Shown here in pieces: positions 3,588 to 22,346 of a stretch of 29,433 nucleotides of DNA (position 1 is the first letter of the stretch; the number at the start of each line of letters is the position of its first letter). The notes below the pieces were generated by a model. The model saw nothing but the letters and a program-made list of their open reading frames with translations, ran no database searches and was not told the DNA's origin. Location of the stretch: positions 1 to 29,433 of IMG/VR virus record IMGVR_UViG_3300024282_000011; one strand, 5' to 3'. Source of the stretch: a virus. The translations under genes and the position numbers were made by a program.

Positions 3588-3969
3588 CAAATTCAACCTT
3601 GATTGTAATAGCCTGCTGAATCGGTTGACCGTCTTTACCTGTTAATTCTTGTTGAACTTTATCAGTCCACCCAAATCTATTTTTCATATTAAAAATCCAT
3701 GTTGTCGCGTTGCCCTCAGCTTGACCCGATGCCATTTTGCGACCTTGTTTCTCCCACCACACTTGCGAGTGTAACAGGCATTCGTCAACATAATCAGAAA
3801 AATCTGGATTGTCTTTTTTTAACGTAGTCCACGACGTTTGAGTTAAACCTATTGCCGCCACCATCTCAAAAATAGAGCCACCATCTTTGCCAACATCTAG
3901 CAATATTTCGCGCCAATTGTCGGGTAGTTTGTCAATAGTTGTACGCGGCCTGCCGACTGGGTTTAACAT
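3562..3969 (-). CDS. terS: Terminase small subunit
   Basis: A 135-aa protein starting MLNPVGRPRTTIDKLPDNW. The ATG at 3969 is preceded by a strong GAGGAGGTG ribosome site, which decides the start. An N-terminal HTH-like region (ILLDVGKDGGSIFEMVAAIGLTQTSWTTLKKDNP) fits DNA recognition at the packaging site. The C-terminal half includes the GNATTWIFNMKNRFGW motif common in phage small terminases, and an acidic tail. It overlaps terL, which follows it. TerS binds the pac or cos region and loads TerL. Confidence 0.9.
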   Translation of the reverse strand: MLNPVGRPRTTIDKLPDNWREILLDVGKDGGSIFEMVAAIGLTQTSWTTLKKDNPDFSDYVDECLLHSQVWWEKQGRKMASGQAEGNATTWIFNMKNRFGWTDKVQQELTGKDGQPIQQAITIKVEFDDDSEVQP

Positions 3970-5546: not shown

Positions 5547-6128
5547 TCAATCGCCAATTTCGACAGTATAATTAATTAATGCTTGGTATGCTTTTGGATC
5601 AAGGTTTGCTTTGTGTTTTTCAGCTAATTCTTTTAAATAGTCTTCTTTAGCTGTTTTATAAGCCAAAAAAGCTTCTTCTTCGGTACTGAACAATCCTAAA
5701 AAGTTAAGTTTGCCATGCTTTCTAAGCAGAGATTGAAATTTCCCTTTTGTTTTATGAAAGCATACTCCAATGCAGCACTTGCCTCTTGATGCGTCGCATT
5801 TTTTTAAAGCCCCGTTGATTTCTCGTGGTAAAAATACACAAGTTGCTTCAGAATATAATTTGTTATTTTTAAATAACAAATCTTTATCAGTCTCCCAGCC
5901 AAGTTCAAAACCTTTTTGTTTTTTGCACCAATCTTCAAAATATGAACGGCTTTTAAAGTTTTCACAAACTTCACAATAACGGTAAGTAGGGAATTTTTCA
6001 TGTAGTTTTTTATTGTAACATCTTGCCAACATACCCTGCCATAAACTGTATAATCTTGTGTGCTTTCCGTTTTCTGTTATATCTGTTCCAGTATCATTTC
6101 TACCAATACCACGCACTAACCTACTCAT
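5547..6128 (-). CDS. AP2/HNH-like homing endonuclease homologue, copy 1 (193 aa)
   Basis: Start at 6128 (MSRLVRGIGRNDTG); an upstream in-frame codon gives no better site. The N-terminal half has a Cys-containing zone (WQGMLARCYNKK, CEVCENFKSRSYFEDWC) and ends in TCVFLPREING. The C-terminal half (IGVCFHKTKGKFQSLLRKH, FLGLFSTEEEAFLAYKTAKEDY) fits an AP2-type DNA-binding domain. It is paralogous to the gene at 21381, which has exactly the same length. It sits as a lone insertion among lysis genes, just after a terminated small RNA. Likely a free-standing mobile endonuclease; catalytic residues are not certain. Confidence 0.75.
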   Translation of the reverse strand: MSRLVRGIGRNDTGTDITENGKHTRLYSLWQGMLARCYNKKLHEKFPTYRYCEVCENFKSRSYFEDWCKKQKGFELGWETDKDLLFKNNKLYSEATCVFLPREINGALKKCDASRGKCCIGVCFHKTKGKFQSLLRKHGKLNFLGLFSTEEEAFLAYKTAKEDYLKELAEKHKANLDPKAYQALINYTVEIGD

Positions 6129-6147
6129 TTTCTTAATCTCTAAAAAC

Positions 6148-6266
6148 AAAAAAGCCAACTTGTCTAAATCGGGTGACAGAGCGTAAACAGTAAACGCAAC
6201 CGATAGAACAAATTAGCTTTTTTGTACTGTTTAAATAATTGCTTGATTGCTGTCACACTAGCAAGC
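6148..6266 (-). ncRNA. Structured small RNA, copy A
   Basis: A TGTTATAAT extended -10 (6273-6281, minus strand) starts a transcript of about 119 nt. P1 is TTGCTTG/CAAGCAA. P2 pairs an AAAAAAGC strand with the final GCTTTTTT and doubles as terminator. P3 is ATCGG/CCGAT (6204-6200 with 6172-6168). P4 is GCGT/ACGC. The P1 loop GTGACAG (6256-6250) is complementary to CTGTCAC (6179-6173) between P4 and P3, giving a pseudoknot. The RNA at 8208 has the same order of elements with different but matching bases. No ORF is conserved. Function unknown. Confidence 0.72.
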
Positions 6267-12956: not shown

Positions 12957-13119
12957 AAACCGCACAAATAAGCGTTACACGGTCACACATCAAGGGCAAA
13001 TTAACGGTGTTGAATACTGTTTTTTCGCTCAATCATCAAGTTTAGAAAAGGCAATGGGCGAAGTGCTAACGCGCTTTGCTCAATTCAAAAAACAAGTTAA
13101 GGTGTTTGAAAATGATTAA
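12943..13119 (+). CDS. Unknown early protein (58 aa)
   Basis: Starts MNVIKNRTNKRYTVTHQGQI inside the end of the previous gene. A beta-rich beginning is followed by a helix (LEKAMGEVLTRFAQF). It overlaps the ERF gene start, so the two are translated together. Not recognised. Confidence 0.55.
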   Translation: MNVIKNRTNKRYTVTHQGQINGVEYCFFAQSSSLEKAMGEVLTRFAQFKKQVKVFEND

Positions 13120-13669
13120 ATCCGAATCTATTGCAGCATTAAGCATGGCACTAGCTAAGGCTCAAGGTGAGCTAGAAAACGCGAACAAAAACGCGAACAA
13201 TCCACATTTTAAGAGCCGCTATGCCGACTTAGCGGAGCTACTTAACACTGTGCGCCCTGTTTTATCTAAGCATGGCCTAGCGGTTATTCAAATGCCTAGC
13301 TTTGACAGTGGTGTAGCAAGTGTAGAAACACTTTTAACACATAGTAGCGGCGAATATGTGTGTAGTACCTGTTCTGCCCCAGTCACAAAACAGGACGCAC
13401 AAGGCGTGGGCAGTGCAATCACTTATCTCCGTCGCTATTCTTTAGCCGCGTTTTGCGGTATCGCGCAAGAAGATGATGATGCAAATTCCAGTGTCGGCCA
13501 TAAACCACCATCACCACCACAGGCCAAGCAACAAGCTAAACCTGAGATTAATTCTGATCGTTTAGCAAAGGCGATTGAAAAAATCAAATCTGGCGAAGTA
13601 ACAAAAGAATACGTTTTAAATAACTTCACCTTAACCGATGCCCAACACGCGGCAATTAACGAGGCTTAA
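13112..13669 (+). CDS. erf: ERF-family single-strand annealing protein
   Basis: A 185-aa protein starting MIKSESIAALSMALAKAQGE. HFKSRYADLAELLNTVRPVLSKHGLAVIQ and GVGSAITYLRRYSLAAFCGI are the classical ERF signatures. A short linker and an acidic C-terminal helix follow. ERF proteins anneal complementary strands in phage recombination and circularisation of terminally redundant genomes. It pairs with the exonuclease gene directly downstream, and with SSB at 21978. The start ATG overlaps the previous stop. Confidence 0.93.
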   Translation: MIKSESIAALSMALAKAQGELENANKNANNPHFKSRYADLAELLNTVRPVLSKHGLAVIQMPSFDSGVASVETLLTHSSGEYVCSTCSAPVTKQDAQGVGSAITYLRRYSLAAFCGIAQEDDDANSSVGHKPPSPPQAKQQAKPEINSDRLAKAIEKIKSGEVTKEYVLNNFTLTDAQHAAINEA

Positions 13670-13670
13670 A

Positions 13671-14303
13671 ATGTTAAAAATACGTTGCAGCCAGTTAAAA
13701 CTGGCTATGGTGGACGCAAAAAAAGCAGGCGAATTGTCCGAGTCGGCTAAAAAGCTGATTCAAGATGAAGTCCGAGCTGAGTATTTTGGTGTTCGTGAAC
13801 AAATTAGCAGTAAGTATCTGAAAAAAGGTATTGAGTGTGAGCAACAATCCATTGATCTGCTCAATGAATTAGAGTTTAGACTCGCCAAGCCGTACGTTAA
13901 AAACACTGAACGACGCGCTAATGACTGGATAACTGGGGAGTGTGATATTTACGACCCCGAAGCGCGATTAGTTCGCGACATTAAAACATCGTGGAGTATG
14001 TACACATTTCCTTTGTTCGACACTGAGTGTAAGGACTATGAATGGCAAATGCGCGGATATATGTGGTTGTGGGATTGCGACACTGCTAGCGTAGATTATT
14101 GTCTTGTTGACACACCTGAGCATTTGATCGGTTATGAGCAGCGAGATATTCATATTGTGAGCAATTTGAATTTGCCAGTTGATAAACGTGTTAAAAGTTT
14201 TGTTTTTGAGCGTGATCTCGAAAAAGAGGAGTGTATTAAGATTAGAGTTGAGCAGCTTAATGAGTATTACATTAAGCTAAGACAGAACCTGGTTTGTATC
14301 TAA
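13671..14303 (+). CDS. PD-(D/E)XK exonuclease (YqaJ/RecE-like) of the recombination module
   Basis: A 210-aa protein starting MLKIRCSQLKLAMVDAKKAG one nucleotide after the ERF stop. GIECEQQSIDLLNELE, then ITGECDIYD and RLVRDIKTSW give the Glu/Asp...Asp-Ile-Lys active site, followed by YEWQMRGYMWLWD (the Gln motif), the typical order in phage YqaJ-like exonucleases. With ERF it forms an exonuclease plus annealing pair. It is the last conserved phage gene before the cassette array. Confidence 0.85.
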   Translation: MLKIRCSQLKLAMVDAKKAGELSESAKKLIQDEVRAEYFGVREQISSKYLKKGIECEQQSIDLLNELEFRLAKPYVKNTERRANDWITGECDIYDPEARLVRDIKTSWSMYTFPLFDTECKDYEWQMRGYMWLWDCDTASVDYCLVDTPEHLIGYEQRDIHIVSNLNLPVDKRVKSFVFERDLEKEECIKIRVEQLNEYYIKLRQNLVCI

Positions 14304-14349: not shown

Positions 14350-14437
14350 ATCTAACAAATAATTAACTGGCACAACCTAACAAACTCAGACTTTAGATGC
14401 TGCATGGGGTTGTGTCCAGTTGAATTTGTAGTTAGAT
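14350..14437 (+). other. attC 1
   Basis: ATCTAAC ... GTTAGAT. Inner arms AACTGGCACAACC and GGTTGTGTCCAGTT pair with one extra T. Nearly identical to attC 13 and 14. Its preceding cassette is missing: only the eight-codon remnant lies upstream. Confidence 0.85.
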
Positions 14438-14472
14438 GTGTGGTGGTTTAACGATAGAGCGCGGAGAAAGTT

Positions 14473-14685
14473 ATGACAAAACAAGAAACTATTAACAAAG
14501 AAATAGAAAAAGCAAATAGGCGATTAGATAGACTCAACGATAAACTAAAAGCGTTAAGAGATAAGCATTCTGAAAATGAATCAAATCTAACATATTGGGC
14601 AGGATGGGATATGGGATATCTTATTAGTGCAGTTTCAGCTCTTGAAGATAAGATAGATTTTCTCATAGACCTGAATAACATCTAA
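14473..14685 (+). CDS. Cassette gene: coiled-coil protein (70 aa)
   Basis: MTKQETINKEIEKANRRLDR begins a long charged coiled coil (about 4-40), followed by a more hydrophobic helix (YWAGWDMGYLISAVSALEDKI). Own ribosome site (GGAGAAAG). The stop codon TAA is the middle of the next ATCTAAC box. Unknown function; size and charge fit a small phage regulator or inhibitor, but this is a guess. Confidence 0.7.
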   Translation: MTKQETINKEIEKANRRLDRLNDKLKALRDKHSENESNLTYWAGWDMGYLISAVSALEDKIDFLIDLNNI

Positions 14686-14766
14686 CTAAAAGTTAAACCG
14701 TAACGCCTAACAATTCAAGGCTTGCGTAACCGATTGGGGCGCTATCTGTTTGAACGCAAGTTAGAT
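14680..14766 (+). other. attC 2
   Basis: ATCTAAC ... GTTAGAT, with arms around CCGTAACGCC and GGGGCGCTATCTG. Almost the same sequence as attC 8 (17228). Confidence 0.85.
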
Positions 14767-14784
14767 TTTATAAGAGAGTAAAAT

Positions 14785-15063
14785 ATGTCTGCATATCAAA
14801 AAGTAACAGAATACTACTTTGAAGTAAATCGGGAGTTAATTTCGATTACTTATTTTAGTGAATGCACTATTGAATTAGAAGAAGTGCTAAAAAATGGTCA
14901 AGGAGATACACACATGAAAGGGACGATGTATAAAAACAAAGATAATGGATTATGGGAATGGGAAAACGGCACAAGCAATACAATGTTCTCGAAATATCAC
15001 GGTCAAGATTTAGAGGATGCTATTCTTGATTATATTCAAAAAAACGGATTGCCGCAGGAATAA
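14785..15063 (+). CDS. Cassette gene: unknown protein (92 aa)
   Basis: Starts MSAYQKVTEYYFEVNRELIS, with AAGAGAG before the ATG. Acidic and mixed alpha/beta, with the aromatic stretch DNGLWEWENGTSN. The stop is 1 nt before a half attC. Not recognised. Confidence 0.7.
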   Translation: MSAYQKVTEYYFEVNRELISITYFSECTIELEEVLKNGQGDTHMKGTMYKNKDNGLWEWENGTSNTMFSKYHGQDLEDAILDYIQKNGLPQE

Positions 15064-15536
15064 AATCTAACAACTGCATTAAGCCGTGCAGCTCTCAGTT
15101 TTGCAGCAAAGAAAACGCGCATAGACTCCTTTGAAATCAATGCTGTACTACCTTGCGATTCATCCAAATCACCACGAGCATCTAACCATGGGCTTTCTCT
15201 ATGAGTCATAGTGCTTAATGCAGCACCATCATACCTACCATACGCACTTACAATATCTGTGATAAAACCTAATAAGGAGGCATCTGACTCAGCTACATCT
15301 TCACTTATTTGCCGCCATTTATAATCTCTATATTTATTATACAAGTCAGATATAACGGGCCCATGTTGCCAAGCTTGAAAATCCTCAGAGAATAACTCAA
15401 CACCTTCGGATAAAGAGTATCCCTGAATGTAATAACACAGTTTTTGCAATTTCATTGGAGATGGACTTTCATCAAATAGCGCACGATAAACATTAATGAT
15501 AGTAGTTTGTACTTTATCTAGTTCTTGTGAAATCAC
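15036..15536 (-). CDS. Panacea/SocA-like protein (DUF4065) in a reversed cassette
   Basis: The only leftward gene of the array. I start at the GTG at 15536 (MISQELDKVQTTIINVYRAL), preceded by AGGTGAT; a TTG at 15551 is an alternative. MKLQKLCYYIQGYSLSEG and FQAWQHGPVISDLYNKYRDY are the hallmark of Panacea domains, known as antitoxins and from SocA and GepA. The last 20 or so residues (LRAARLNAVVRFYSC..) are read through a half attC and into the neighbouring gene, so the natural C-terminus may be lost. No partner toxin gene is adjacent. It has its own promoter, as usual for toxin-antitoxin cassettes. Confidence 0.8.
   Translation of the reverse strand: MISQELDKVQTTIINVYRALFDESPSPMKLQKLCYYIQGYSLSEGVELFSEDFQAWQHGPVISDLYNKYRDYKWRQISEDVAESDASLLGFITDIVSAYGRYDGAALSTMTHRESPWLDARGDLDESQGSTALISKESMRVFFAAKLRAARLNAVVRFYSCGNPFF
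15065..15090 (+). other. attC 3, left half only
   Basis: ATCTAACAACTGCATTAAGC is a normal left end and matches the GTTAGAT that opens its cassette, but no matching right arm or core follows. The right half was lost or replaced when the reversed gene arrived. Confidence 0.55.
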
Positions 15537-15622
15537 ACGATCACCTATCAACTCATTGAAATTTAATTATTAATCAGTCACACTTAATGCAATACCGAAA
15601 CATCATGTGATGCTTTGTGCCG

Positions 15623-15650
15623 ATTATAACTTACGCTTCGATGTTCGCAA
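15623..15650 (-). promoter_or_regulatory. Promoter of the Panacea gene
   Basis: TTGCGA (15650-15645), 16-nt spacer, TATAAT (15628-15623) on the minus strand, about 87 nt before the GTG. Strong match; the remaining gap 15552-15710 shows nothing else. Confidence 0.65.
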
Positions 15651-15710
15651 TCATGATTCCCGATAAATAAAGTTATTTTTCATTACCAAGCGACATATAT
15701 TGACGCTTAT

Positions 15711-15804
15711 ACCTAACAACAGCAATAAAAGGCGATGCCCCACTCTTTTTTAATGTTTAAGCAACCAAGCGTGGGGCAGTATCCGCTTGATTGCAGAGTT
15801 AGAC
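15711..15804 (+). other. attC 4
   Basis: ACCTAAC ... GTTAGAC. Arms GATGCCCCAC and GTGGGGCAGTATC pair. Closely related to attC 17. Confidence 0.83.
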
Positions 15805-15822
15805 ATAATATGAGGTTTTATT

Positions 15823-16032
15823 ATGAGTAAAATATGTATAAATCAACTTTGCGAAAATCACCAAGAAATGCCTAGCGCATTAAATCCTGATGAAAGGGTT
15901 GTTCGCATAGCAATAAACAACTCATTGGAAGTTAAGGATATTTACCGACATTTGTACATAAATCTTAAAAATGGTAATGAGTTTTATTTTTGCGGAGTTT
16001 GTCATCACGCAATAGAAATGTCTCGTTTGTGA
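15823..16032 (+). CDS. Cassette gene: putative zinc-binding protein (69 aa)
   Basis: MSKICINQLCENHQEMPSAL has Cys5 and Cys10, and FYFCGVCHHAIEM near the end has a C-x2-C-H-H group, so a small zinc ribbon is plausible. The start region (ATTATGAGTAAAAT) resembles that of the next gene, also MSKICI; the two share a cassette without an attC between them. Function unknown. Confidence 0.65.
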   Translation: MSKICINQLCENHQEMPSALNPDERVVRIAINNSLEVKDIYRHLYINLKNGNEFYFCGVCHHAIEMSRL

Positions 16033-16051
16033 TGAAAATTGAGAGTATTTT

Positions 16052-16234
16052 ATGAGTAAAATTTGCATTGTTAGTGGCCAAATTGATAGTTGTGGTGATT
16101 TTATTGGTATGTGTGCATATTCAAAAGCTAATAGCGGATGTGGGTTACCCGAAAAAGAGGGATGTAGCTACCAAAAAACGGAAAATGAATATGAAAAACA
16201 TGATACACAAACAAAAAACCTAACAACAGGTTAA
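16052..16234 (+). CDS. Cassette gene: Cys-rich protein (60 aa)
   Basis: MSKICIVSGQIDSCGDFIGM with further Cys in MCAYSKANSGCGLPEKEGC: six Cys in total. Its last residues (NLTTG) and stop are coded inside attC 5. Shares its first six residues with the preceding gene, so possibly a partial duplication. Function unknown. Confidence 0.6.
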   Translation: MSKICIVSGQIDSCGDFIGMCAYSKANSGCGLPEKEGCSYQKTENEYEKHDTQTKNLTTG

Positions 16235-16337
16235 GCGGTGCTACCCGCAAGACTTCAAACATTAACACAGGAATACATACATGAGCAATAACGAAAGCAA
16301 GTGCGGGGTAGTATCCGACTTTAACCGAGAGTTAGGC
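16218..16337 (+). other. attC 5
   Basis: ACCTAAC ... GTTAGGC. Arms AAGCGGTGCTACCCGCA and GCGGGGTAGTATCCG pair. A start codon lies in the loop (see gene 16281). Confidence 0.8.
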
Positions 16338-16574
16338 ATGATTAGCGATAAACTTGTATGGAATAACTGGAAAGAAGGCAGAAAAGTGCCTGATGATGTC
16401 CCCGTTGATGAGTTGTTACTTATTGACTTAGGTGATGGTTGCAATCGGAGATATAAAACTGCCCAATTTTTTATGACTGCAAATAAAGAAAAATTTGGGT
16501 GTGTTGGTGATGTTTTTTGGTTTGATGCAAAACCAATTCGTTGGGCTTCTATTCAACATTTGGTTGATGCCTAA
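16281..16574 (+). CDS. Cassette gene starting inside attC 5 (97 aa)
   Basis: The ATG at 16281 has AGGA upstream and lies in the attC loop; the first 19 residues (MSNNESKCGVVSDFNRELG) are attC-encoded. The rest (MISDKLVWNNWKEGRKVPDD ... PIRWASIQHLVDA) could start at the ATG at 16338 but without a ribosome site. The GDVFWFDAKPIRWASI ending resembles DUF551-like phage proteins; this is a weak resemblance. The stop is the TAA of GCCTAAC. Confidence 0.65.
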   Translation: MSNNESKCGVVSDFNRELGMISDKLVWNNWKEGRKVPDDVPVDELLLIDLGDGCNRRYKTAQFFMTANKEKFGCVGDVFWFDAKPIRWASIQHLVDA

Positions 16575-16687
16575 CTACCACACTTAAGGCGTAAACACCC
16601 ACAACAAACTAAACAACAACTAACCCACTTTAAGCAAATGCACGATAATTGGCTGGGTGTTTATCGCGCTTGAAGTTGGAGTTAGAT
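16569..16687 (+). other. attC 6
   Basis: GCCTAAC ... GTTAGAT; arms CTTAAGGCGTAAACACCC and GGGTGTTTATCGCGCTTGA. The opening core of this cassette (GTTAGGC) is the exact complement of its closing box. Confidence 0.83.
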
Positions 16688-16702
16688 TTTACAGGTGTTG
16701 AA

Positions 16703-16933
16703 ATGACAAAACGTTTTTATGAAGTAAAAGTACAAGCAACAAAAGTAATGGTTATTGAGGTTGATGATAACGGTGATGAAGCTTCACAAATGGCAGCAGA
16801 AGATTATGCTTTTACCCATGCTTTTGGTTGTATTGATGTTGATGATGTTGAGGTCATAGATAGCGAACATCTAAAAACAGATAAAGAAGTTGAGCAATCA
16901 AAACGATTTTGCAATGAGTTTGTAAAAATCTAA
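16703..16933 (+). CDS. Cassette gene: acidic protein (76 aa)
   Basis: Start at 16703 (MTKRFYEVKVQATKVMVIEV) with AGGTG upstream; the frame is also open back through attC 6. The beta-strand start and acidic helix (GDEASQMAAEDYAF) are like the small phage proteins of the 'YEV.ikA.....veA.deeeA' type. Stop is the TAA of ATCTAAC. Unknown function. Confidence 0.68.
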   Translation: MTKRFYEVKVQATKVMVIEVDDNGDEASQMAAEDYAFTHAFGCIDVDDVEVIDSEHLKTDKEVEQSKRFCNEFVKI

Positions 16934-17015
16934 CTATTTATTAACAGGCAACGCATAAGCTGTAAAACATTGCGTAATTGGCTGGCGCGTTGTCCTGTTG
17001 AATTTTGAGTTAGAC
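16928..17015 (+). other. attC 7
   Basis: ATCTAAC ... GTTAGAC; arms AACAGGCAACGC and GCGTTGTCCTGTT with one extra T. Confidence 0.85.
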
Positions 17016-17044
17016 ACTTTTAACGATGAATGAGGATAAAGAAA

Positions 17045-17233
17045 ATGGCACAAGACTATTATCAAGGCAATGGCGTAATGATGAATTACGGCCATACTTA
17101 CGACATGAAACGTGAAGAACTGATAACTGTTTTAGATAAGCACGTTGCAATAGTTGCGCGACTTAGCAATGAAAATGACGAACTTAAAGAGCAGATTTTA
17201 AAATTAAAGTACCCCGAAACAATGGGTGTCTAA
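17045..17233 (+). CDS. Cassette gene: unknown protein (62 aa)
   Basis: I choose the ATG at 17045 (MAQDYYQGNGVMMNYGHTYD), 9 nt after GAGG. The C-terminal half is a helix (VAIVARLSNENDELKEQIL) suited to coiled-coil dimerisation. Stop is the TAA of GTCTAAC. The leader AACGATGAATGAGGATA resembles those of other cassettes. Confidence 0.65.
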   Translation: MAQDYYQGNGVMMNYGHTYDMKREELITVLDKHVAIVARLSNENDELKEQILKLKYPETMGV

Positions 17234-17316
17234 CAAAAAGTTAAACCGTAACGCCTACAACAATTCAAGGCTTGCGTAACCGATTGGGGCGTTATCGGTT
17301 TGAACGCAAGTTAGAT
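17228..17316 (+). other. attC 8
   Basis: GTCTAAC ... GTTAGAT, nearly identical to attC 2 except for the outer box, which matches its own cassette. Confidence 0.85.
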
Positions 17317-17332
17317 ACGCGGAGTATTTGCG

Positions 17333-17617
17333 ATGAATAATGAATGCCAAACATGGACTCAGGGTAGATTTATAGACTCAAATCAATATAGACATTGGTC
17401 TAAGGAACAAAAAGAAAAAGCCAACAATGATGAAAAAAAATTAGTCAGACCAAACCCAAGAGAAAGTGCAATTTGTATGTGCAATGAGCCAAACCAAGCG
17501 GCTTGGATAGCACAAAGATTAAACTTAGCATCAAGATTGGAAGAGCTAACGTATGATTTTGCTACTGGCAAAATAGATGGCGAAGATATCAAAACTTTTG
17601 TAAAACGATACTTATAA
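17333..17617 (+). CDS. Cassette gene: phage-type protein (94 aa)
   Basis: MNNECQTWTQGRFIDSNQYR is followed by CNEPNQAAWIAQRLNLASRLEE and TYDFATGKIDGEDIKTFV. The 'N.P..A.WIA.RLN.A..LE' pattern recalls small phage proteins of unknown function. Soluble, with a helical C-terminal half. Stop is 2 nt before attC 9. Confidence 0.65.
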   Translation: MNNECQTWTQGRFIDSNQYRHWSKEQKEKANNDEKKLVRPNPRESAICMCNEPNQAAWIAQRLNLASRLEELTYDFATGKIDGEDIKTFVKRYL

Positions 17618-17619
17618 GT

Positions 17620-17740
17620 ATCTAACAACAGCATTAATAGGCGCAAGCCCACAATTTACGATTAGCGAGAGGTTACTATGACAGAAGATAATACACAAGC
17701 ATTGGCTGGGGCTGCGTCCGAGTTAAATGCGGAGTTAGAT
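17620..17740 (+). other. attC 9
   Basis: ATCTAAC ... GTTAGAT; arms GCATTAATAGGCGCAAGCCC and GGGCTGCGTCCGAGTTAAATGC. A twin of attC 11. Contains a ribosome site and start codon for the gene at 17678. Confidence 0.85.
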
Positions 17741-17959
17741 GTTGTTGATAAGGCCGTTTTAGTTGAAGTTTACCCAACAAAAATATGGGTAGATAGCGGA
17801 TTTGATGGCGTAAAAAGAATAATGATGCAACATCAAGGGTGTGACGCTTTTGAATTTGTGGCTATCAAATACGACTATAGATACACATCAAATTCTATGC
17901 AGCACGCACTTGTTAAGAATATTTTAAGTTTTTTGGGTGTTGAAGATAACAACATCTAA
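17678..17959 (+). CDS. Cassette gene with attC-encoded N-terminus (93 aa)
   Basis: GAGAGGTTACT precedes the ATG, and both lie inside attC 9. The first 21 residues (MTEDNTQALAGAASELNAEL..) are the translated right arm. The body (PTKIWVDSGFDGVKRIMMQHQG, CDAFEFVAIKYDYRYTSNS) seems to be a compact alpha/beta protein of a phage-like type I cannot name. Stop is the TAA of ATCTAAC. Confidence 0.68.
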   Translation: MTEDNTQALAGAASELNAELDVVDKAVLVEVYPTKIWVDSGFDGVKRIMMQHQGCDAFEFVAIKYDYRYTSNSMQHALVKNILSFLGVEDNNI

Positions 17960-18050
17960 CTAGACGCATAACGCGCAAGTACCCACAAAGATATTTTAAT
18001 TTGCATTGTAAGCGATTGGGTACTTGTCGCTGTTGATGCAGGAGTTAGGC
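17954..18050 (+). other. attC 10
   Basis: ATCTAAC ... GTTAGGC; arms GCATAACGCGCAAGTACCCA and TGGGTACTTGTCGCTGTTGA. Confidence 0.84.
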
Positions 18051-18079
18051 ATCTTTTTAAGATAAACGAGGAATAACTT

Positions 18080-18370
18080 ATGGCTACTGTAAACGGTAAT
18101 ACGTTGATTTTAGTTGACCATAGATTTGAGGCTTTATGCCAAGAAATTTACGGTGCAGATATTTCATTAGCTAAAAATATTTATAATGACGGCTCTTGGA
18201 CTTATCAATGCTTAGCCGTCATAAACGCTTGGGAGATGTGGTGCAAATCAAGAGAATGCGCTTTTATTGATGCAGATAGATACATAAAGCATGTAAAAGA
18301 CGCAAGTAAAAATTCTATGTTCAGAGCTGGCGCAGCTTGTTCAGCGAATGAGTTAAAACGCTTACATTGA
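18080..18370 (+). CDS. Cassette gene: unknown protein (96 aa)
   Basis: Starts MATVNGNTLILVDHRFEALC, with CGAGGAA upstream. AVINAWEMWCKSRECAF recalls the 'aWeaWqA' segment of many small phage proteins. Three Cys cluster in the second half. Stop is 1 nt before attC 11. Confidence 0.66.
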   Translation: MATVNGNTLILVDHRFEALCQEIYGADISLAKNIYNDGSWTYQCLAVINAWEMWCKSRECAFIDADRYIKHVKDASKNSMFRAGAACSANELKRLH

Positions 18371-18371
18371 T

Positions 18372-18495
18372 GCCTAACAACAGCATTAACAGGCGCAAGC
18401 CCACAACAATTTACGATTAACGAGAGGTTACTATGACAGATAAAAACGAGCAAGCATTGGCTGGGGTTGCGTCCGAGTTAAATGCGGAGTTAGAC
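18372..18495 (+). other. attC 11
   Basis: GCCTAAC ... GTTAGAC; same arms and embedded start as attC 9. Confidence 0.85.
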
Positions 18496-18654
18496 ATTAA
18501 CAAAAAGATGCAAAGACTGCTTTATCAACTAACAAAAGATGCAGCTAGAAATAGTTTTAGCGAATACTTGGAATTATTAGGTATTACCAAAGACGAATAC
18601 GAACAAATAAAAAACATTTTGAAAGAAAAGTTAAATGTTGATTTATATGTTTAA
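18433..18654 (+). CDS. Cassette gene with attC-encoded N-terminus (73 aa)
   Basis: MTDKNEQALAGVASELNAEL is coded by attC 11 and repeats the N-terminus of the 17678 protein, though the bodies are unrelated. The body (KMQRLLYQLTKDAARNSFSE ... GITKDEYEQIKNILKEKL) is helical and may be a small DNA- or protein-binding module. Shares a cassette with the next gene. Confidence 0.65.
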   Translation: MTDKNEQALAGVASELNAELDINKKMQRLLYQLTKDAARNSFSEYLELLGITKDEYEQIKNILKEKLNVDLYV

Positions 18655-18687
18655 TACTGTTGTCGATGATGATTTTAGAGGTTAATT

Positions 18688-18864
18688 ATGATTATTGGTG
18701 GTAAATATAAATTCAAATGCTCGCCAGAGATTTTGATTTATGTAGGAAAAAACTGGAGCGGTAATGGTTATTGGCATCAATTTGAAAAAACAGATGCTAG
18801 AGGCAAGGTATGGTGTGAACTTCTTGATTCTGACTTAACAATGATTGAAGAAGTTAATGCCTAA
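18688..18864 (+). CDS. Cassette gene: unknown protein (58 aa)
   Basis: MIIGGKYKFKCSPEILIYVG, then KNWSGNGYWHQFEKTDARGK and WCELLDSDLTMIEEV. TTAGAGG precedes the ATG. Beta-rich; the 'NWSGNGYWHQF' pattern resembles proteins in phages and cassettes, from memory. Stop is the TAA of GCCTAAC. Confidence 0.62.
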   Translation: MIIGGKYKFKCSPEILIYVGKNWSGNGYWHQFEKTDARGKVWCELLDSDLTMIEEVNA

Positions 18865-18978
18865 CTATTGAACTAAACCGTAAAACCCCTAGTTTTTAGC
18901 TGTTTACCGTAGCTTTTATACTGAAAAATATTAAAAAATGGCGTTTGGGGTTTTATCGGTTTGAGTGAGGAGTTAGAT
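18859..18978 (+). other. attC 12
   Basis: GCCTAAC ... GTTAGAT; arms AACTAAACCGTAAAACCCC and GGGGTTTTATCGGTTTGAGT. The opening core of its cassette is GTTAGAC, so outer boxes do not match (two-gene cassette). Confidence 0.82.
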
Positions 18979-19026
18979 GTGTGAATGCTTGACGATGAAT
19001 TTTTAACGATGAACGAGGATATAAAC

Positions 19027-19224
19027 ATGGGCTTATTTGCAGAAATTAAGGTTTTTGACTTACCAACAGAAACCGCTAAAAAGATATTGAAAGACTATAT
19101 TGAGCAAGACACTGGTAAAAAAGTTAAGGAGATTAACTTTAGTGTTGGAAATAGAACAGTGGGTTACTGTGCTAATGAACATAACGAAGTATATCTGAGC
19201 GGTATTAAGGTTGTGTTTGAGTAA
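19027..19224 (+). CDS. Cassette gene: unknown protein (65 aa)
   Basis: I choose 19027 (MGLFAEIKVFDLPTETAKKI) with GAGGA 7 nt upstream. Compact alpha/beta; TAKKILKDYIEQDTGKKVKE is a charged helix and CANEHNEVYLSGIKVVF two strands. Not recognised. Confidence 0.62.
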   Translation: MGLFAEIKVFDLPTETAKKILKDYIEQDTGKKVKEINFSVGNRTVGYCANEHNEVYLSGIKVVFE

Positions 19225-19234
19225 CCCAATAAAC

Positions 19235-19322
19235 ATCTAACAAATAATTAACTGGCACAACCCAACAAAATCAGACCTTAGATGCTGCATGGGGTTGTGT
19301 CCAGTTGAATTGGTAGTTAGAT
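19235..19322 (+). other. attC 13
   Basis: ATCTAAC ... GTTAGAT, with the AACTGGCACAACC family of arms (as attC 1 and 14). Confidence 0.85.
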
Positions 19323-19385
19323 ACGCAAGATTTTAACGATGAATTTATAGGTTTGAAGCACCTTTGACGCTTCGGAGTATTGATT

Positions 19386-19583
19386 ATGTTACCACACCAA
19401 CAACGTGTAATTGATGAGAAAACTGAACTGTTTGATAAAATTGAAAAACTAGAGGCTTTTATCAAAACAAACCCTATTTTTGGGCAAATGGAATTACAAG
19501 ACCAACAATTATTGGAGGAACAATTAAAACACATGAACGCATACTGGAATGTGTTGCGGCAGCGTGTTGAGAGCTTTGTGTAG
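19386..19583 (+). CDS. Cassette gene: conserved small phage protein (65 aa)
   Basis: MLPHQQRVIDEKTELFDKIE, then KLEAFIKTNPIFGQ and NAYWNVLRQRVESF. The 'PHQQRV..EK.EL..K..KL..FI...M..Y..VL..R...F' pattern is a widespread phage family of unknown function (as I recall, the crAss001_48-related type), predicted helical. CGGAG lies 8 nt before the ATG. A phage gene carried as a cassette is notable. Confidence 0.72.
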   Translation: MLPHQQRVIDEKTELFDKIEKLEAFIKTNPIFGQMELQDQQLLEEQLKHMNAYWNVLRQRVESFV

Positions 19584-19586
19584 AGT

Positions 19587-19674
19587 ATCTAACAAATAAT
19601 TAACTGGCACAACCTAACAATATCAAACCTTAGACGATGTATGAGGTTGTGTCCAGTTGAATTTGTAGTTATGC
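19587..19674 (+). other. attC 14
   Basis: ATCTAAC ... GTTATGC; arms as attC 1. Its core GTTATGC departs from GTTRRRY, but the next box is GCATAAC, the exact complement. Confidence 0.82.
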
Positions 19675-19699
19675 GGTTTTAATTTAATGAGAGGGTTTT

Positions 19700-19936
19700 A
19701 TGATAGTAAGAAGTTTTTGCGAGTCAGATGGGCTAGGTACTTCTAGTAGAGCTGCTAAAGTAGCCATTATTTCTGCTTTATTAACGGAAGAAAATGCCAT
19801 TGCCACAGATAAGACTATAGAAATTAAACGAGTGAAATGTTGGGACTTTAAAGACTTAGTTCAAGATAATATTTTTGGTTTTAATCCCGACAAATTAAAG
19901 AAAAGTAGAGGTAAAGGCAAGATTAAACAGTGGTAA
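19700..19936 (+). CDS. Cassette gene: unknown protein (78 aa)
   Basis: MIVRSFCESDGLGTSSRAAK, then VAIISALLTEENAIATDKTI and a basic tail (KLKKSRGKGKIKQW). GAGAGGG upstream. The basic C-terminus suggests binding to nucleic acid; no motif recognised. Stop 1 nt before attC 15. Confidence 0.65.
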   Translation: MIVRSFCESDGLGTSSRAAKVAIISALLTEENAIATDKTIEIKRVKCWDFKDLVQDNIFGFNPDKLKKSRGKGKIKQW

Positions 19937-19937
19937 C

Positions 19938-20025
19938 GCATAACGACTGAACTAAGCGGTGTTGCAAAACCATAATACACGGCGTAGCTGCATGGGGCAA
20001 CATCCGCTTTAGTGATTAGTTAGAT
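19938..20025 (+). other. attC 15
   Basis: GCATAAC ... GTTAGAT; arms AACTAAGCGGTGTTGC and GCAACATCCGCTTTAGT. Confidence 0.83.
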
Positions 20026-20054
20026 GTGTTGACTATTAACGATGAAGTGCGGAG

Positions 20055-20369
20055 GTGGTTATGAGTGAAAAAGAGCAAGTTTTAGAAGATTTGTGCATGT
20101 ATGCAGCACATGGAACAAGATACGAAGATATGGAAAAGGCATATAACGCAGGGATTGAAGCGGAAAGAAAATCAAATAATGTTTGGCAATCTATGGACAC
20201 AGCACCAAAAGACAAACAAATACTGGTATGGGACAAACTAAATGAATGTTTTTATACAGTACACTGGAATAAAAACAAAAACCTTTGGTTTGTTGGTGTT
20301 TTTGAGTATATAAGTGATGAAAGCCGTTTGTTATGGCAAGCGTTACCTGACAAACCAAGTAACATCTAA
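20055..20369 (+). CDS. Cassette gene: DUF551-like phage protein (104 aa)
   Basis: The frame begins with a GTG at 20055; an ATG at 20061 (MSEKEQVLEDLCMYAAHG) after GGAGGTGGTT may be the better start. MDTAPKDKQILVWDKLN and NLWFVGVFEY ... LLWQALPDKP fit the 'tAPKDg..il.w' family of small phage proteins. Stop is the TAA of ATCTAAC. Function unknown. Confidence 0.7.
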   Translation: MVMSEKEQVLEDLCMYAAHGTRYEDMEKAYNAGIEAERKSNNVWQSMDTAPKDKQILVWDKLNECFYTVHWNKNKNLWFVGVFEYISDESRLLWQALPDKPSNI

Positions 20370-20458
20370 CAATAGCAATAAGGGGACGCACCCTTTATTA
20401 AACTTAAATTAACGTAGCAATCGGCTAGAGTGCGTTCCGCTTGATTGCTGAGTTATAC
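20364..20458 (+). other. attC 16
   Basis: ATCTAAC ... GTTATAC; arms GGGGACGCACCC and AGTGCGTTCCGCTTGATTGC. Confidence 0.8.
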
Positions 20459-20474
20459 CGTACAGGTGATAGCG

Positions 20475-20819
20475 ATGAATATTAGCATGAGAAATGGCAG
20501 CATAAACATTAATGGCAATGTTTATAAAGGGAACAATGTGCAAATTAGCAACGGCAAGGTTGTTGTTGACGGCATTGAACAGAGCCAAGTTTTAGAACAC
20601 AAAATCACGGTAAACGTGGTTGGTGACGTTGAAAGCATTGAAGCGGGTAGTGGCGATGTTGTTGTAAGCGGCAGTGTTGGAAGCCTACGCACAGGTAGCG
20701 GCGATGTAAAATGCGGAAGCGTTAACGGAAATGTGCAAACTGGAAGTGGCGACATTGACTGTGGAAACATAGCAGGAAGCGTAAGAACAGGTAGCGGAGA
20801 TATTAGCCACCGCGCATAG
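20475..20819 (+). CDS. Cassette gene: GSGD-repeat protein (114 aa)
   Basis: MNISMRNGSININGNVYKGN, then four repeats of the kind [T/A]GSGD[V/I] at about 17-residue spacing (EAGSGDVVVSGSV, TGSGDVKCGSV, TGSGDIDCGNI, TGSGDISHRA). Such repeats form a beta-solenoid, as in bactofilin-like or DUF4097-like proteins. GGTGA precedes the ATG at 20475. Possibly a scaffold or self-assembling protein; function unknown. Confidence 0.7.
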   Translation: MNISMRNGSININGNVYKGNNVQISNGKVVVDGIEQSQVLEHKITVNVVGDVESIEAGSGDVVVSGSVGSLRTGSGDVKCGSVNGNVQTGSGDIDCGNIAGSVRTGSGDISHRA

Positions 20820-20820
20820 G

Positions 20821-20912
20821 TTATAACAACAGCAATAAGAGGCGCGCCCCACTCTTTTTAGTACCAAAGCAACCAAGTGCGGGGCAGCGTCCGCTTGATT
20901 GCGTAGTTAGAC
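20821..20912 (+). other. attC 17
   Basis: TTATAAC ... GTTAGAC; arms GGCGCGCCCCACTC and GTGCGGGGCAGCGTCC. The box TTATAAC is one base off the complement of its opening core GTTATAC. Confidence 0.78.
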
Positions 20913-20932
20913 ACTGGAATAGCGAGGAATTT

Positions 20933-21190
20933 ATGCCAGAAGTAAAAACACACCCGATACAACTACCGTATCGGCGGGTTGCAGGTGCTTGTATGCCAAC
21001 GTCAGTAACAATGATGGCTTATGAGGTTTATTGTCACGTTTATGCGCCACAAGAGGCTTTAATAACAGGCGGCTGTCGTGGCGGATTTAGTGTTGGTGAG
21101 TTAATAGCATTTCTTTACGCCCGTAATTTTACTAAAGCTGAGTGGGATATGCGCGTTCAAGAAGTTTTTAAAAACATGAAAATGGAATAG
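20933..21190 (+). CDS. Last cassette gene: unknown protein (85 aa)
   Basis: MPEVKTHPIQLPYRRVAGAC with several Cys, then LITGGCRGGFSVGELIAFLY and a charged helical end. GAGGAA is upstream. Stop lies 1 nt before GTCTAAC, the only remaining part of its attC. Not recognised. Confidence 0.66.
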   Translation: MPEVKTHPIQLPYRRVAGACMPTSVTMMAYEVYCHVYAPQEALITGGCRGGFSVGELIAFLYARNFTKAEWDMRVQEVFKNMKME

Positions 21191-21191
21191 T

Positions 21192-21198
21192 GTCTAAC
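21192..21198 (+). other. attC 18, outer box only
   Basis: GTCTAAC is the exact complement of the GTTAGAC that opens this cassette, but no arms follow; an unrelated hairpin starts 16 nt later. Marks the right border of the array. Confidence 0.55.
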
Positions 21199-21293: not shown

Positions 21294-21380
21294 TGATAAT
21301 GCAGCTAGTCGGCGGACGAAAGCAGGAGTCATTAACCTGTGCTGCACCATCCACATAATGCCCTAATGAGGAATCAAAAA

Positions 21381-21962
21381 ATGTCAAAATTAGTCTATGG
21401 CGTAGGCCATAACGACACAAACACACCTGCAAGAATAAACGGAAAGCTCACTAAGCAATATATTCTGTGGCAGGGTATGCTATCAAGATGTTACAGTCGA
21501 AAAACTCAAAAAAGGCAAAATACCTATATTGGATGTTATGTAAGTGAAAACTTTAAAAGTAGAGCTTATTTTGAGGAGTGGTGTAGAAATCAACAGGGCT
21601 TTAATTTAGGGTGGAATCTTGATAAAGACTTGTTATTTAAACACAATAAATTATATTCAGAGTCGACTTGCGTTTTCTTACCAAAAGAAATTAATTTAGC
21701 ATTAACAAAAAGACAAAATGATAGAGGCTTGCATCCTATTGGTGTTTATCTAAACAAGCCAACTGGGATGTTTATATCATCCATCTCCAAAAAAAACAAA
21801 CGAATATATTTGGGTTTGTTCAACAATGAAAAAGAAGCTTTTTTAGCCTACAAAACAGCTAAAGAAGATTATCTAAAAGAACTAGCTAATCTATACGCCC
21901 ATATATTAGATAAACGCGCGCACAATGCACTTATTAACTATATTGTCGAAATTAACGATTAA
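21381..21962 (+). CDS. AP2/HNH-like homing endonuclease homologue, copy 2 (193 aa)
   Basis: Start at 21381 (MSKLVYGVGHNDTNTPARIN) with TGAGGA 9 nt upstream. Same length and domain order as the gene at 5547: WQGMLSRCYSRKTQ, FKSRAYFEEWC, LDKDLLFKHNKLYSESTCVF, then the AP2-like IYLGLFNNEKEAFLAYKTAK and a matching end (NALINYIVEIND). It lies between the cassette array and SSB, so both copies sit at junctions of functional blocks. Likely a mobile free-standing endonuclease. Confidence 0.76.
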   Translation: MSKLVYGVGHNDTNTPARINGKLTKQYILWQGMLSRCYSRKTQKRQNTYIGCYVSENFKSRAYFEEWCRNQQGFNLGWNLDKDLLFKHNKLYSESTCVFLPKEINLALTKRQNDRGLHPIGVYLNKPTGMFISSISKKNKRIYLGLFNNEKEAFLAYKTAKEDYLKELANLYAHILDKRAHNALINYIVEIND

Positions 21963-21977
21963 TAAAACGAGGTAAAT

Positions 21978-22346
21978 ATGTTTGTAAAATTAGTACGTCT
22001 CAGCCGTGATGCTGAGTTAAAAAATGTTAATGGCAAGTCGCTATTGAATGTAAATGTAGTTTATGATGTCGGTTATGGCGACAATAAAAAAGGCCAATTT
22101 CTTGATCTTGCAATGTTTGGTAACCAAGCTGAAAAGCTTGCACCGCATTTGACGAAAGGCAAGCAAATTGTTATCCGTGCCGATGATATTAATATTCATG
22201 AACATAACGGAAAAGCATACTTAAAAGGCACGTTATTAAGCCTTGAGTTTGTCGCACAAGCTAAAACTCAAGACGCGCACAATGAAGCAAAAAGCAACGG
22301 ATATCAGCGTCAAAATAATGATTTAGACGACGAACTGCCGTTTTAA
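21978..22346 (+). CDS. ssb: Single-stranded DNA-binding protein
   Basis: A 122-aa OB-fold protein starting MFVKLVRLSRDAELKNVNGK. The central part (FLDLAMFGNQAEKLAPHLTKGK, IHEHNGKAYLKGTLLSLEFV) follows the SSB core, and the C-terminus DDELPF is the acidic tip that binds partner proteins. CGAGG precedes the ATG. It serves replication and the ERF/exonuclease pathway. Confidence 0.9.
   Translation: MFVKLVRLSRDAELKNVNGKSLLNVNVVYDVGYGDNKKGQFLDLAMFGNQAEKLAPHLTKGKQIVIRADDINIHEHNGKAYLKGTLLSLEFVAQAKTQDAHNEAKSNGYQRQNNDLDDELPF

What the first reader, a model, noticed from the sequence alone, without database searches (positions are those of the whole stretch)
14350..21198. Integron cassette array in a phage early operon
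Sixteen complete attC-like sites and two half sites separate about 18 small genes between the recombination module and SSB. Outer boxes of opening and closing sites are exact complements in 13 of 16 cassettes, which is strong evidence that each was an excisable circle. No integrase is present, so the phage would rely on a host integron integrase to gain or lose cassettes. The array follows the early promoter, so captured genes are expressed at once. Cassette arrays inside phage genomes are, as far as I know, rare.
Basis: partly seen in the sequence, partly recalled or inferred. Interest (0 to 1): 0.93.

Follow-up and report, generated by a model that had tools for sequence, protein, structure and literature searches.

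The report
Backwards integron cassettes in a phage
This bacterial virus carries a row of about 18 small genes separated by the same recombination sites that bacteria use to swap antibiotic-resistance cassettes, but with the genes facing the opposite way to bacterial cassettes, and the same reversal turns up in many unrelated phages, which suggests that phages keep their own pool of swappable genes.

Summary
Window 14350-21198 contains 16 complete attC sites and two half sites. A covariance model built only from bacterial integron attC sites finds all 16 and nothing else in the window. Opening and closing boxes are exact complements in 13 of 16 cassettes (shuffled mean 4.9). No tyrosine recombinase is present. 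In the closest relatives found, exonuclease and SSB are adjacent: the ~7 kb array is an insertion.

The extrahelical bases that orient IntI put the attC top strand on minus, while genes are on plus; each stem belongs to the gene downstream of it. The same inversion dominates attC arrays in other viral contigs (three or more sites: 18 inverted, 2 canonical), while bacterial arrays are canonical (genes 68 vs 9). Three natural exchange junctions break at the box this polarity predicts.

attC clusters in phages were already reported (Qi et al. 2023, PMC9892861); I found no report of the inversion. Best reading: integron-type cassettes moved in trans by host IntI, forming a phage pool opposite to bacterial cassettes. 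Enzyme, host and reason for inversion are inferred.

The parts
13076..13669 (+). ERF single-strand annealing protein (left flank)
   Evidence: Pfam ERF 1.4e-27
13638..14303 (+). exonuclease (left flank)
   Evidence: phrog_5715 5.4e-66
14350..14437 (-). attC site 1; strand given is the attC top strand by extrahelical bases
   Evidence: R2 E 2.1e-7; EHB T-N6-G on + strand
14473..14685 (+). cassette gene, 70 aa, unknown
   Evidence: ORF with RBS; stop codon inside next left box
14680..14766 (-). attC site 2
   Evidence: R2 E 1.4e-5
14785..15063 (+). cassette gene, 92 aa, unknown
15065..15093 (-). half site: box ATCTAAC plus one arm; the SocA frame reads straight through it
   Evidence: opening and closing boxes of the cassette match
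15036..15551 (-). SocA/Panacea-domain gene, the only cassette gene in canonical orientation relative to attC; its 3' end is fused to a broken attC
   Evidence: Pfam SocA_Panacea 1.4e-16; phrog_1281 1e-35
15711..15804 (-). attC site 3
   Evidence: R2 E 5.7e-6
15823..16032 (+). cassette gene, 69 aa (first of two in one cassette)
16052..16234 (+). cassette gene, 60 aa (second in the same cassette; boxes do not match, probable fusion)
16218..16337 (-). attC site 4
   Evidence: R2 E 8e-4; R1 E 2.5e-11
16281..16574 (+). cassette gene, 97 aa; start codon and RBS lie inside attC site 4
16569..16687 (-). attC site 5
   Evidence: R2 E 1.7e-5
16703..16933 (+). cassette gene, 76 aa
16928..17015 (-). attC site 6
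   Evidence: R2 E 1.3e-7
17045..17233 (+). cassette gene, 62 aa
17228..17316 (-). attC site 7
   Evidence: R2 E 2.3e-7
17333..17617 (+). cassette gene, 94 aa
17620..17740 (-). attC site 8
   Evidence: R2 E 2.7e-8
17678..17959 (+). cassette gene, 93 aa; starts inside attC site 8, so the attC arm is translated
17954..18050 (-). attC site 9
   Evidence: R2 E 1.4e-4
18080..18370 (+). cassette gene, 96 aa
18372..18495 (-). attC site 10
   Evidence: R2 E 3.8e-8
18433..18654 (+). cassette gene, 73 aa; starts inside attC site 10; shares only its attC-encoded N-terminus with 17678-17959
18688..18864 (+). cassette gene, 58 aa, phage family (second ORF of a probable fused cassette)
   Evidence: phrog_30689 4.6e-15; 66% identical to a Shewanella phage 1/41 protein
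18859..18978 (-). attC site 11
   Evidence: R2 E 4.6e-10
19027..19224 (+). cassette gene, 65 aa
   Evidence: phrog_20484 6e-4
19235..19322 (-). attC site 12
   Evidence: R2 E 4.7e-7
19386..19583 (+). cassette gene, 65 aa, phage family
   Evidence: phrog_774 1.1e-18; Pfam crAss001_48 3.3e-19; homolog in L003
19587..19674 (-). attC site 13 (right box GTTATGC)
   Evidence: R2 E 3.1e-6
19700..19936 (+). cassette gene, 78 aa; its closing box GCATAAC matches the unusual opening box GTTATGC
19938..20025 (-). attC site 14
   Evidence: R2 E 4.3e-10
20061..20369 (+). cassette gene, 102 aa
20364..20458 (-). attC site 15
   Evidence: R2 E 1.2e-7
20475..20819 (+). cassette gene, 114 aa, phage family
   Evidence: phrog_3163 1.1e-33
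20821..20912 (-). attC site 16
   Evidence: R2 E 5.1e-9
20933..21190 (+). last cassette gene, 85 aa
21192..21198 (-). terminal half site GTCTAAC, matching the opening box GTTAGAC at 20906; end of the array
21339..21962 (+). HNH/AP2 endonuclease (right flank)
   Evidence: phrog_953 5.7e-73
21978..22346 (+). SSB (right flank)
   Evidence: Pfam SSB 2.1e-5, just below its cut-off

Best explanation
The array is an integron-type cassette array (CALIN) inserted between exonuclease and SSB in a tailed phage. Each mobile unit, read on the coding strand, is [C - attC stem - GTTRRRY - gene - RYYYAA], so the attC stem belongs to the gene that follows it. The genes run opposite to the attC top strand, the reverse of bacterial cassettes. 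I infer that a host integron integrase supplied in trans recombines the folded plus (coding) strand at the left box of each site, so that the phage gains, loses and reshuffles small accessory phage genes without an integrase of its own. The inverted polarity makes the coding strand the recombinogenic one. If transcription and replication run the same way, that strand is the lagging-strand template, the configuration that raised excision when the Vibrio cholerae integron was inverted. Shown: sites, polarity, box pairing, breakpoints in other phages, cassette structure. Inferred: the enzyme, ongoing activity, the strand-exposure reason.
For: Independent bacterial attC model R2 hits all 16 sites on the minus strand only. 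EHBs on the plus strand: T first in 16/16, G second in 12/16, spacing 6 in 11 and 7 in 5, against the T-N6-G preferred by IntI1 (PMC3053210). Box complementarity 13/16. Orientation control: R100 aadA1 and bacterial arrays 68 same / 9 opposite; viral contigs 13/124; window 0/18. With R2, viral contigs with three or more sites: 18 inverted / 2 canonical. Where genes change strand, sites change strand too (L085, L094, L102). Deposited annotation of MW202573 gives the same inversion. Three exchange junctions begin at the left box and run through the stem into the downstream leader or gene. Window ORFs 16281, 17678 and 18433 start inside the attC upstream of them. Inverted-array contigs carry phage genes. 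IntI1 recombines phage attC sites in the laboratory (PMC9892861). Inverting the V. cholerae integron raises excision (PMC11023631).
Against: No recombination of these sites was observed, and the host is unknown. Agitococcus lubricus (Moraxellaceae) has very similar attC sites and a complete IntI, but no phage-host link was shown. No window cassette was found in another array, so gain and loss was not seen in this phage itself. TJE1, a known phage CALIN, is canonical. The lagging-strand argument assumes a replication direction that was not determined.
Confidence: 0.8

Rival explanations
1. A piece of a host chromosomal integron (ordinary cassettes) was picked up by the phage and is now a passive relic.
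For: Stems nearly identical to Agitococcus lubricus attC sites; one gene, SocA, is in canonical orientation; phages that took up host integron segments are known (PMC9892861).
Against: All 18 other genes are opposite to bacterial cassettes; at least four belong to phage families and two have homologs in cassette-free phages; stems are heterogeneous; the same inversion occurs in many unrelated phages.
Confidence: 0.07
2. The hairpins are RNA elements (processing sites, insulators, weak terminators) between genes of an early operon and only resemble attC.
For: They sit between co-oriented genes and form hairpins.
Against: Boxes pair exactly across the gene (13/16) more than within the site (4/16); EHB geometry and boxes match bacterial attC; exchange junctions lie at the box; orientation is strand-specific; no Rfam family matches.
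Confidence: 0.05
3. The array is reshuffled by the phage's own ERF/exonuclease annealing system using the repeated stems as homology, without any integron integrase.
For: The array lies beside ERF, exonuclease and SSB; phage annealing proteins tolerate short homologies (general knowledge); no integrase in the contig.
Against: Homologous exchange would break inside the shared stems, whereas three junctions break at the outer box with no upstream homology; box complementarity needs a site-specific cut; stems in the window are mostly too different.
Confidence: 0.08

Closest known systems
Phage CALINs and phage integrons of Qi et al. 2023 (PMC9892861): TJE1, P12002L, PH101, MW202573
   Same: attC clusters without IntI in phage genomes; five of six tested phage attC sites recombine with attI1 through IntI1.
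   Different: TJE1 has three attC sites; here 16. TJE1 is canonical; MW202573 is inverted like the window and PH101 possibly so (weak). I saw no mention of inversion in the main text; supplements were not read.
Sedentary chromosomal integrons and CALINs of bacteria (Agitococcus, Rhodanobacter, Dyella, Vibrio)
   Same: Same R/L boxes, extrahelical bases, box complementarity, one small gene per cassette.
   Different: Gene orientation opposite; no intI in the contig; cargo includes phage families; array sits in a phage replication/recombination region.
Experimentally inverted V. cholerae superintegron (PMC11023631)
   Same: Recombinogenic attC strand placed on the lagging-strand template, if the phage array is co-directional with replication.
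   Different: There the whole array was turned in a chromosome; here each gene is opposite to its own attC.
Class 1 integron cassette aadA1 in R100
   Same: attC architecture, found by the window-built model at E 8.7e-8.
   Different: Gene precedes its attC, in top-strand sense.

Membership tests
attC recombination site | Outer boxes RYYYAAC and GTTRRRY flanking two pairing inner arms | tested here: met
   a few boxes depart by one base
attC recombination site | Two extrahelical bases on one arm, about six bases apart | tested here: met
   T-N6/7-(G,A,T) in 16/16
attC recombination site | Recognised by IntI, bottom strand preferred | not testable with these tools
   IntI1 acts on other phage attC sites (PMC9892861)
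Gene cassette | Opening and closing boxes complementary, as from a circle | tested here: met
   13/16, shuffled mean 4.9; other viral arrays 58/84 vs 29.3 shuffled
Canonical gene cassette | Gene in attC top-strand sense, attC at its 3' side | tested here: not met
   window 0 same / 18 opposite; only SocA is canonical
CALIN (attC cluster without integrase) | At least two attC sites within a few kb, no intI | tested here: met
   16 sites; no TIGR02249 or PF00589
Complete integron | intI gene with attI | tested here: not met
   No intI in the contig; the contig is linear and may be incomplete

The most novel reading that the evidence does not exclude
Phages of many lineages share a cassette pool of their own, kept apart from the bacterial pool by inverted gene polarity: host IntI moves the cassettes, but exchange between the pools silences genes in either direction, and the inversion makes the coding strand the recombinogenic one, tuned for fast reshuffling during infection.
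Probability: 0.5. Interest if true: 0.93.

Novelty: new variant of a known kind. Interest (0 to 1): 0.84.

Why it matters
Integrons are known as the bacterial system that assembles resistance arrays. A class of cassettes with reversed genes, recurrent in phages that lack the integrase, would mean that phages exploit host integron integrases to exchange their own accessory genes, and that orientation separates two cassette pools. It bears directly on open questions: where cassettes and attC sites come from, how phages acquire small accessory genes, and why attC strand orientation matters. All are testable with the existing attC x attI assay. It also gives a reason why cassettes need not flow freely between phage and bacterial integrons.

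Tried and rejected
Rfam scan: no family. DNA relatives in the annotated phage collection: none at megablast level; short weak matches only in distant mode. Host search with DnaB in the family of Agitococcus found only dnaB genes at 33-39% identity, probably chromosomal. A strict hand-written attC finder caught 9 of 16 sites and was replaced by covariance models. A longest-ORF orientation count gave a muddier picture in high-GC contigs (48 same / 88 opposite), replaced by a composition-plus-RBS caller and checked against deposited annotation. The L104/L106 indel was considered as a cassette event and rejected: the breakpoints are not at boxes. A tyrosine recombinase beside the L052 array looked like an integron integrase but is not IntI by TIGR02249. 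Stem-flank identity over all pairs was too noisy; only three pairs with clear flank homology were informative. Early promoter: not above chance. Literature searches found no report of inverted phage cassettes in this library, which lacks preprints and most subscription papers.
Full report
OBSERVATION. The window is the whole of one IMG/VR contig, 29,433 bases, linear, with phage genes: a terminase with intein, DnaB, ERF, SSB, exonuclease and HNH endonuclease. Between exonuclease and the HNH/SSB genes lie 16 attC-like sites and two half sites. The boxes that open and close each cassette are exact complements in 13 of 16 cassettes; shuffling gives a mean of 4.9 and never 13 in 100,000 trials. 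Unusual boxes pair correctly: GTTATGC opens and GCATAAC closes the cassette at 19668-19944. Two of the three mismatched cassettes contain two ORFs, as expected from loss of an internal site; the third differs by one base.

INDEPENDENT MODEL. To avoid circularity I built a covariance model, R2, from 26 attC sites of bacterial genomes and plasmid R100; the three source genomes tested encode a full-length IntI, one with a stop codon inside. R2 finds all 16 window sites (E 4e-10 to 8e-4), all on the minus strand, and nothing else in the window. Conversely, the window-built model R1 finds the class 1 aadA1 attC of R100 at E 8.7e-8 and long arrays in Agitococcus, Rhodanobacter and Dyella. Related or similar phages L147-L151 and L003 give no R2 hit, which supports specificity.

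POLARITY. In aadA1 of R100 the gene precedes its attC and the extrahelical bases C and A lie on the 5' arm of the top strand. In the window these bases lie on the other arm: read on the plus strand, the 3' arm carries T-N6-G or close variants (first base T in 16 of 16, second G in 12, spacing six in 11 and seven in 5). T-N6-G is an arrangement IntI1 excises well (PMC3053210). So the attC top strand is minus and the recombinogenic bottom strand is plus, the coding strand. The genes are therefore opposite to those of normal cassettes.

Two features of the window agree. Three ORFs (16281, 17678, 18433) start, with ribosome-binding sites, inside the attC site upstream of them, so the stem is part of the downstream gene's unit. 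And 17678 and 18433 share an attC-encoded N-terminus but not the rest of the protein. The one gene in canonical orientation is the SocA/Panacea gene at 15036-15551. It runs into a broken attC at its 3' end, as a captured normal cassette with a deletion would, but SocA relatives also occur in phages, so its origin is open.

GENERALITY. Three DNA patterns based on attC arms, which are blind to gene strand, found further viral contigs. R2 gives 171 sites in 62 loci searched. Counting flanking genes: bacterial arrays 68 in attC sense and 9 opposite; viral contigs 13 and 124; window 0 and 18. With R2 sites and near-duplicate contigs set aside as far as noticed, viral contigs with at least three sites are 18 inverted and 2 canonical, 124 genes against 12; a sign test on 18 of 20 gives about 0.0004 two-sided (my arithmetic; some contigs may be related). 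In L085, L094 and L102 the sites change strand where the genes change strand. The inverted contigs carry genes of unlike phages: primase-helicase and DNA polymerase, RecE-type recombination, DnaC loader, glucosyltransferase, tail, endolysin. MW202573, a phage CALIN in the list of Qi et al., is inverted by its deposited annotation; TJE1 is canonical.

BREAKPOINTS. Three natural pairs show where cassettes join (L111/L050, two sites of L134, L099/L117). Identity begins at the left box and continues through stem and right box into the downstream leader or gene, while the upstream genes are unrelated. This is the cut predicted for IntI by the observed polarity (R' box of the minus strand) and not the one predicted for a canonical plus-strand array. 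Box complementarity also holds in the other viral arrays (58 of 84 exact; 29.3 after shuffling within arrays) as in bacterial ones (30 of 47; 12.4).

INSERTION SITE AND CARGO. In the closest sequenced relative by terminase, MW202462 (50% identity), exonuclease and SSB overlap by 17 bases, and in MW202710 they are adjacent: the array site is empty there. At least four cassette proteins match phage families, and two have relatives in phages without cassettes. Most have no match.

MECHANISM. Most likely a host integron integrase acts in trans, as IntI1 does on other phage attC sites (PMC9892861). The contig has no tyrosine recombinase. Why inverted? In V. cholerae, placing the bottom strand on the lagging-strand template sharply raises excision (PMC11023631). 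For genes transcribed with the fork, inversion puts the bottom strand on the coding strand and hence the lagging template. GC skew turns positive over the array, which fits but does not prove a direction, since skew also follows gene strand. A second consequence is separation: bacterial cassettes entering such an array, or phage cassettes entering attI, would be antisense. These points are inference.

NOVELTY AND LIMITS. attC clusters in phages are known (PMC9892861). I found no report of systematic inversion in the library, which holds no preprints, and supplements were not read.

Noticed in passing
window 2654-3295 (+) within 1386-3596 (-): An HNH endonuclease ORF (Pfam HNH_3 2.7e-11, phrog_10730 2.8e-25) lies antisense, wholly inside the intein region of the terminase (about 2561-3371). 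An intein that carries an endonuclease gene on the opposite strand would be unusual.
   Followed up: partly
window 5547-6158 and 21339-21962: Two similar-looking proteins, the second an HNH/AP2 endonuclease that sits directly between the array end and SSB.
   Followed up: partly
window 14446, 17018, 19001, 19331, 20034: A leader motif close to TTAACGATGAA lies shortly after the right box of five cassettes.
   Followed up: no
L050 and L052: Two near-identical phage contigs with what looks like a reverse transcriptase and repeated variable stretches (a diversity-generating retroelement?) beside an inverted attC array whose last part differs between them.
   Followed up: partly
L076 1393-2709 (-): A phage-type tyrosine integrase lies directly after the end of the L052 array; not an IntI by TIGR02249.
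   Followed up: partly
L061, L071, L078: Agitococcus lubricus (Moraxellaceae) has a complete IntI and many attC sites, some with stems nearly identical to window sites 1, 12 and 13; possible host group.
   Followed up: partly
L087, L132: The two viral contigs with three or more sites in canonical orientation; may be true integrons or misassigned host sequence.
   Followed up: no
window 15623-15650 (-): The best-scoring promoter-like match on the minus strand lies just upstream of the SocA gene, though such matches are no more frequent than chance over the region.
   Followed up: no
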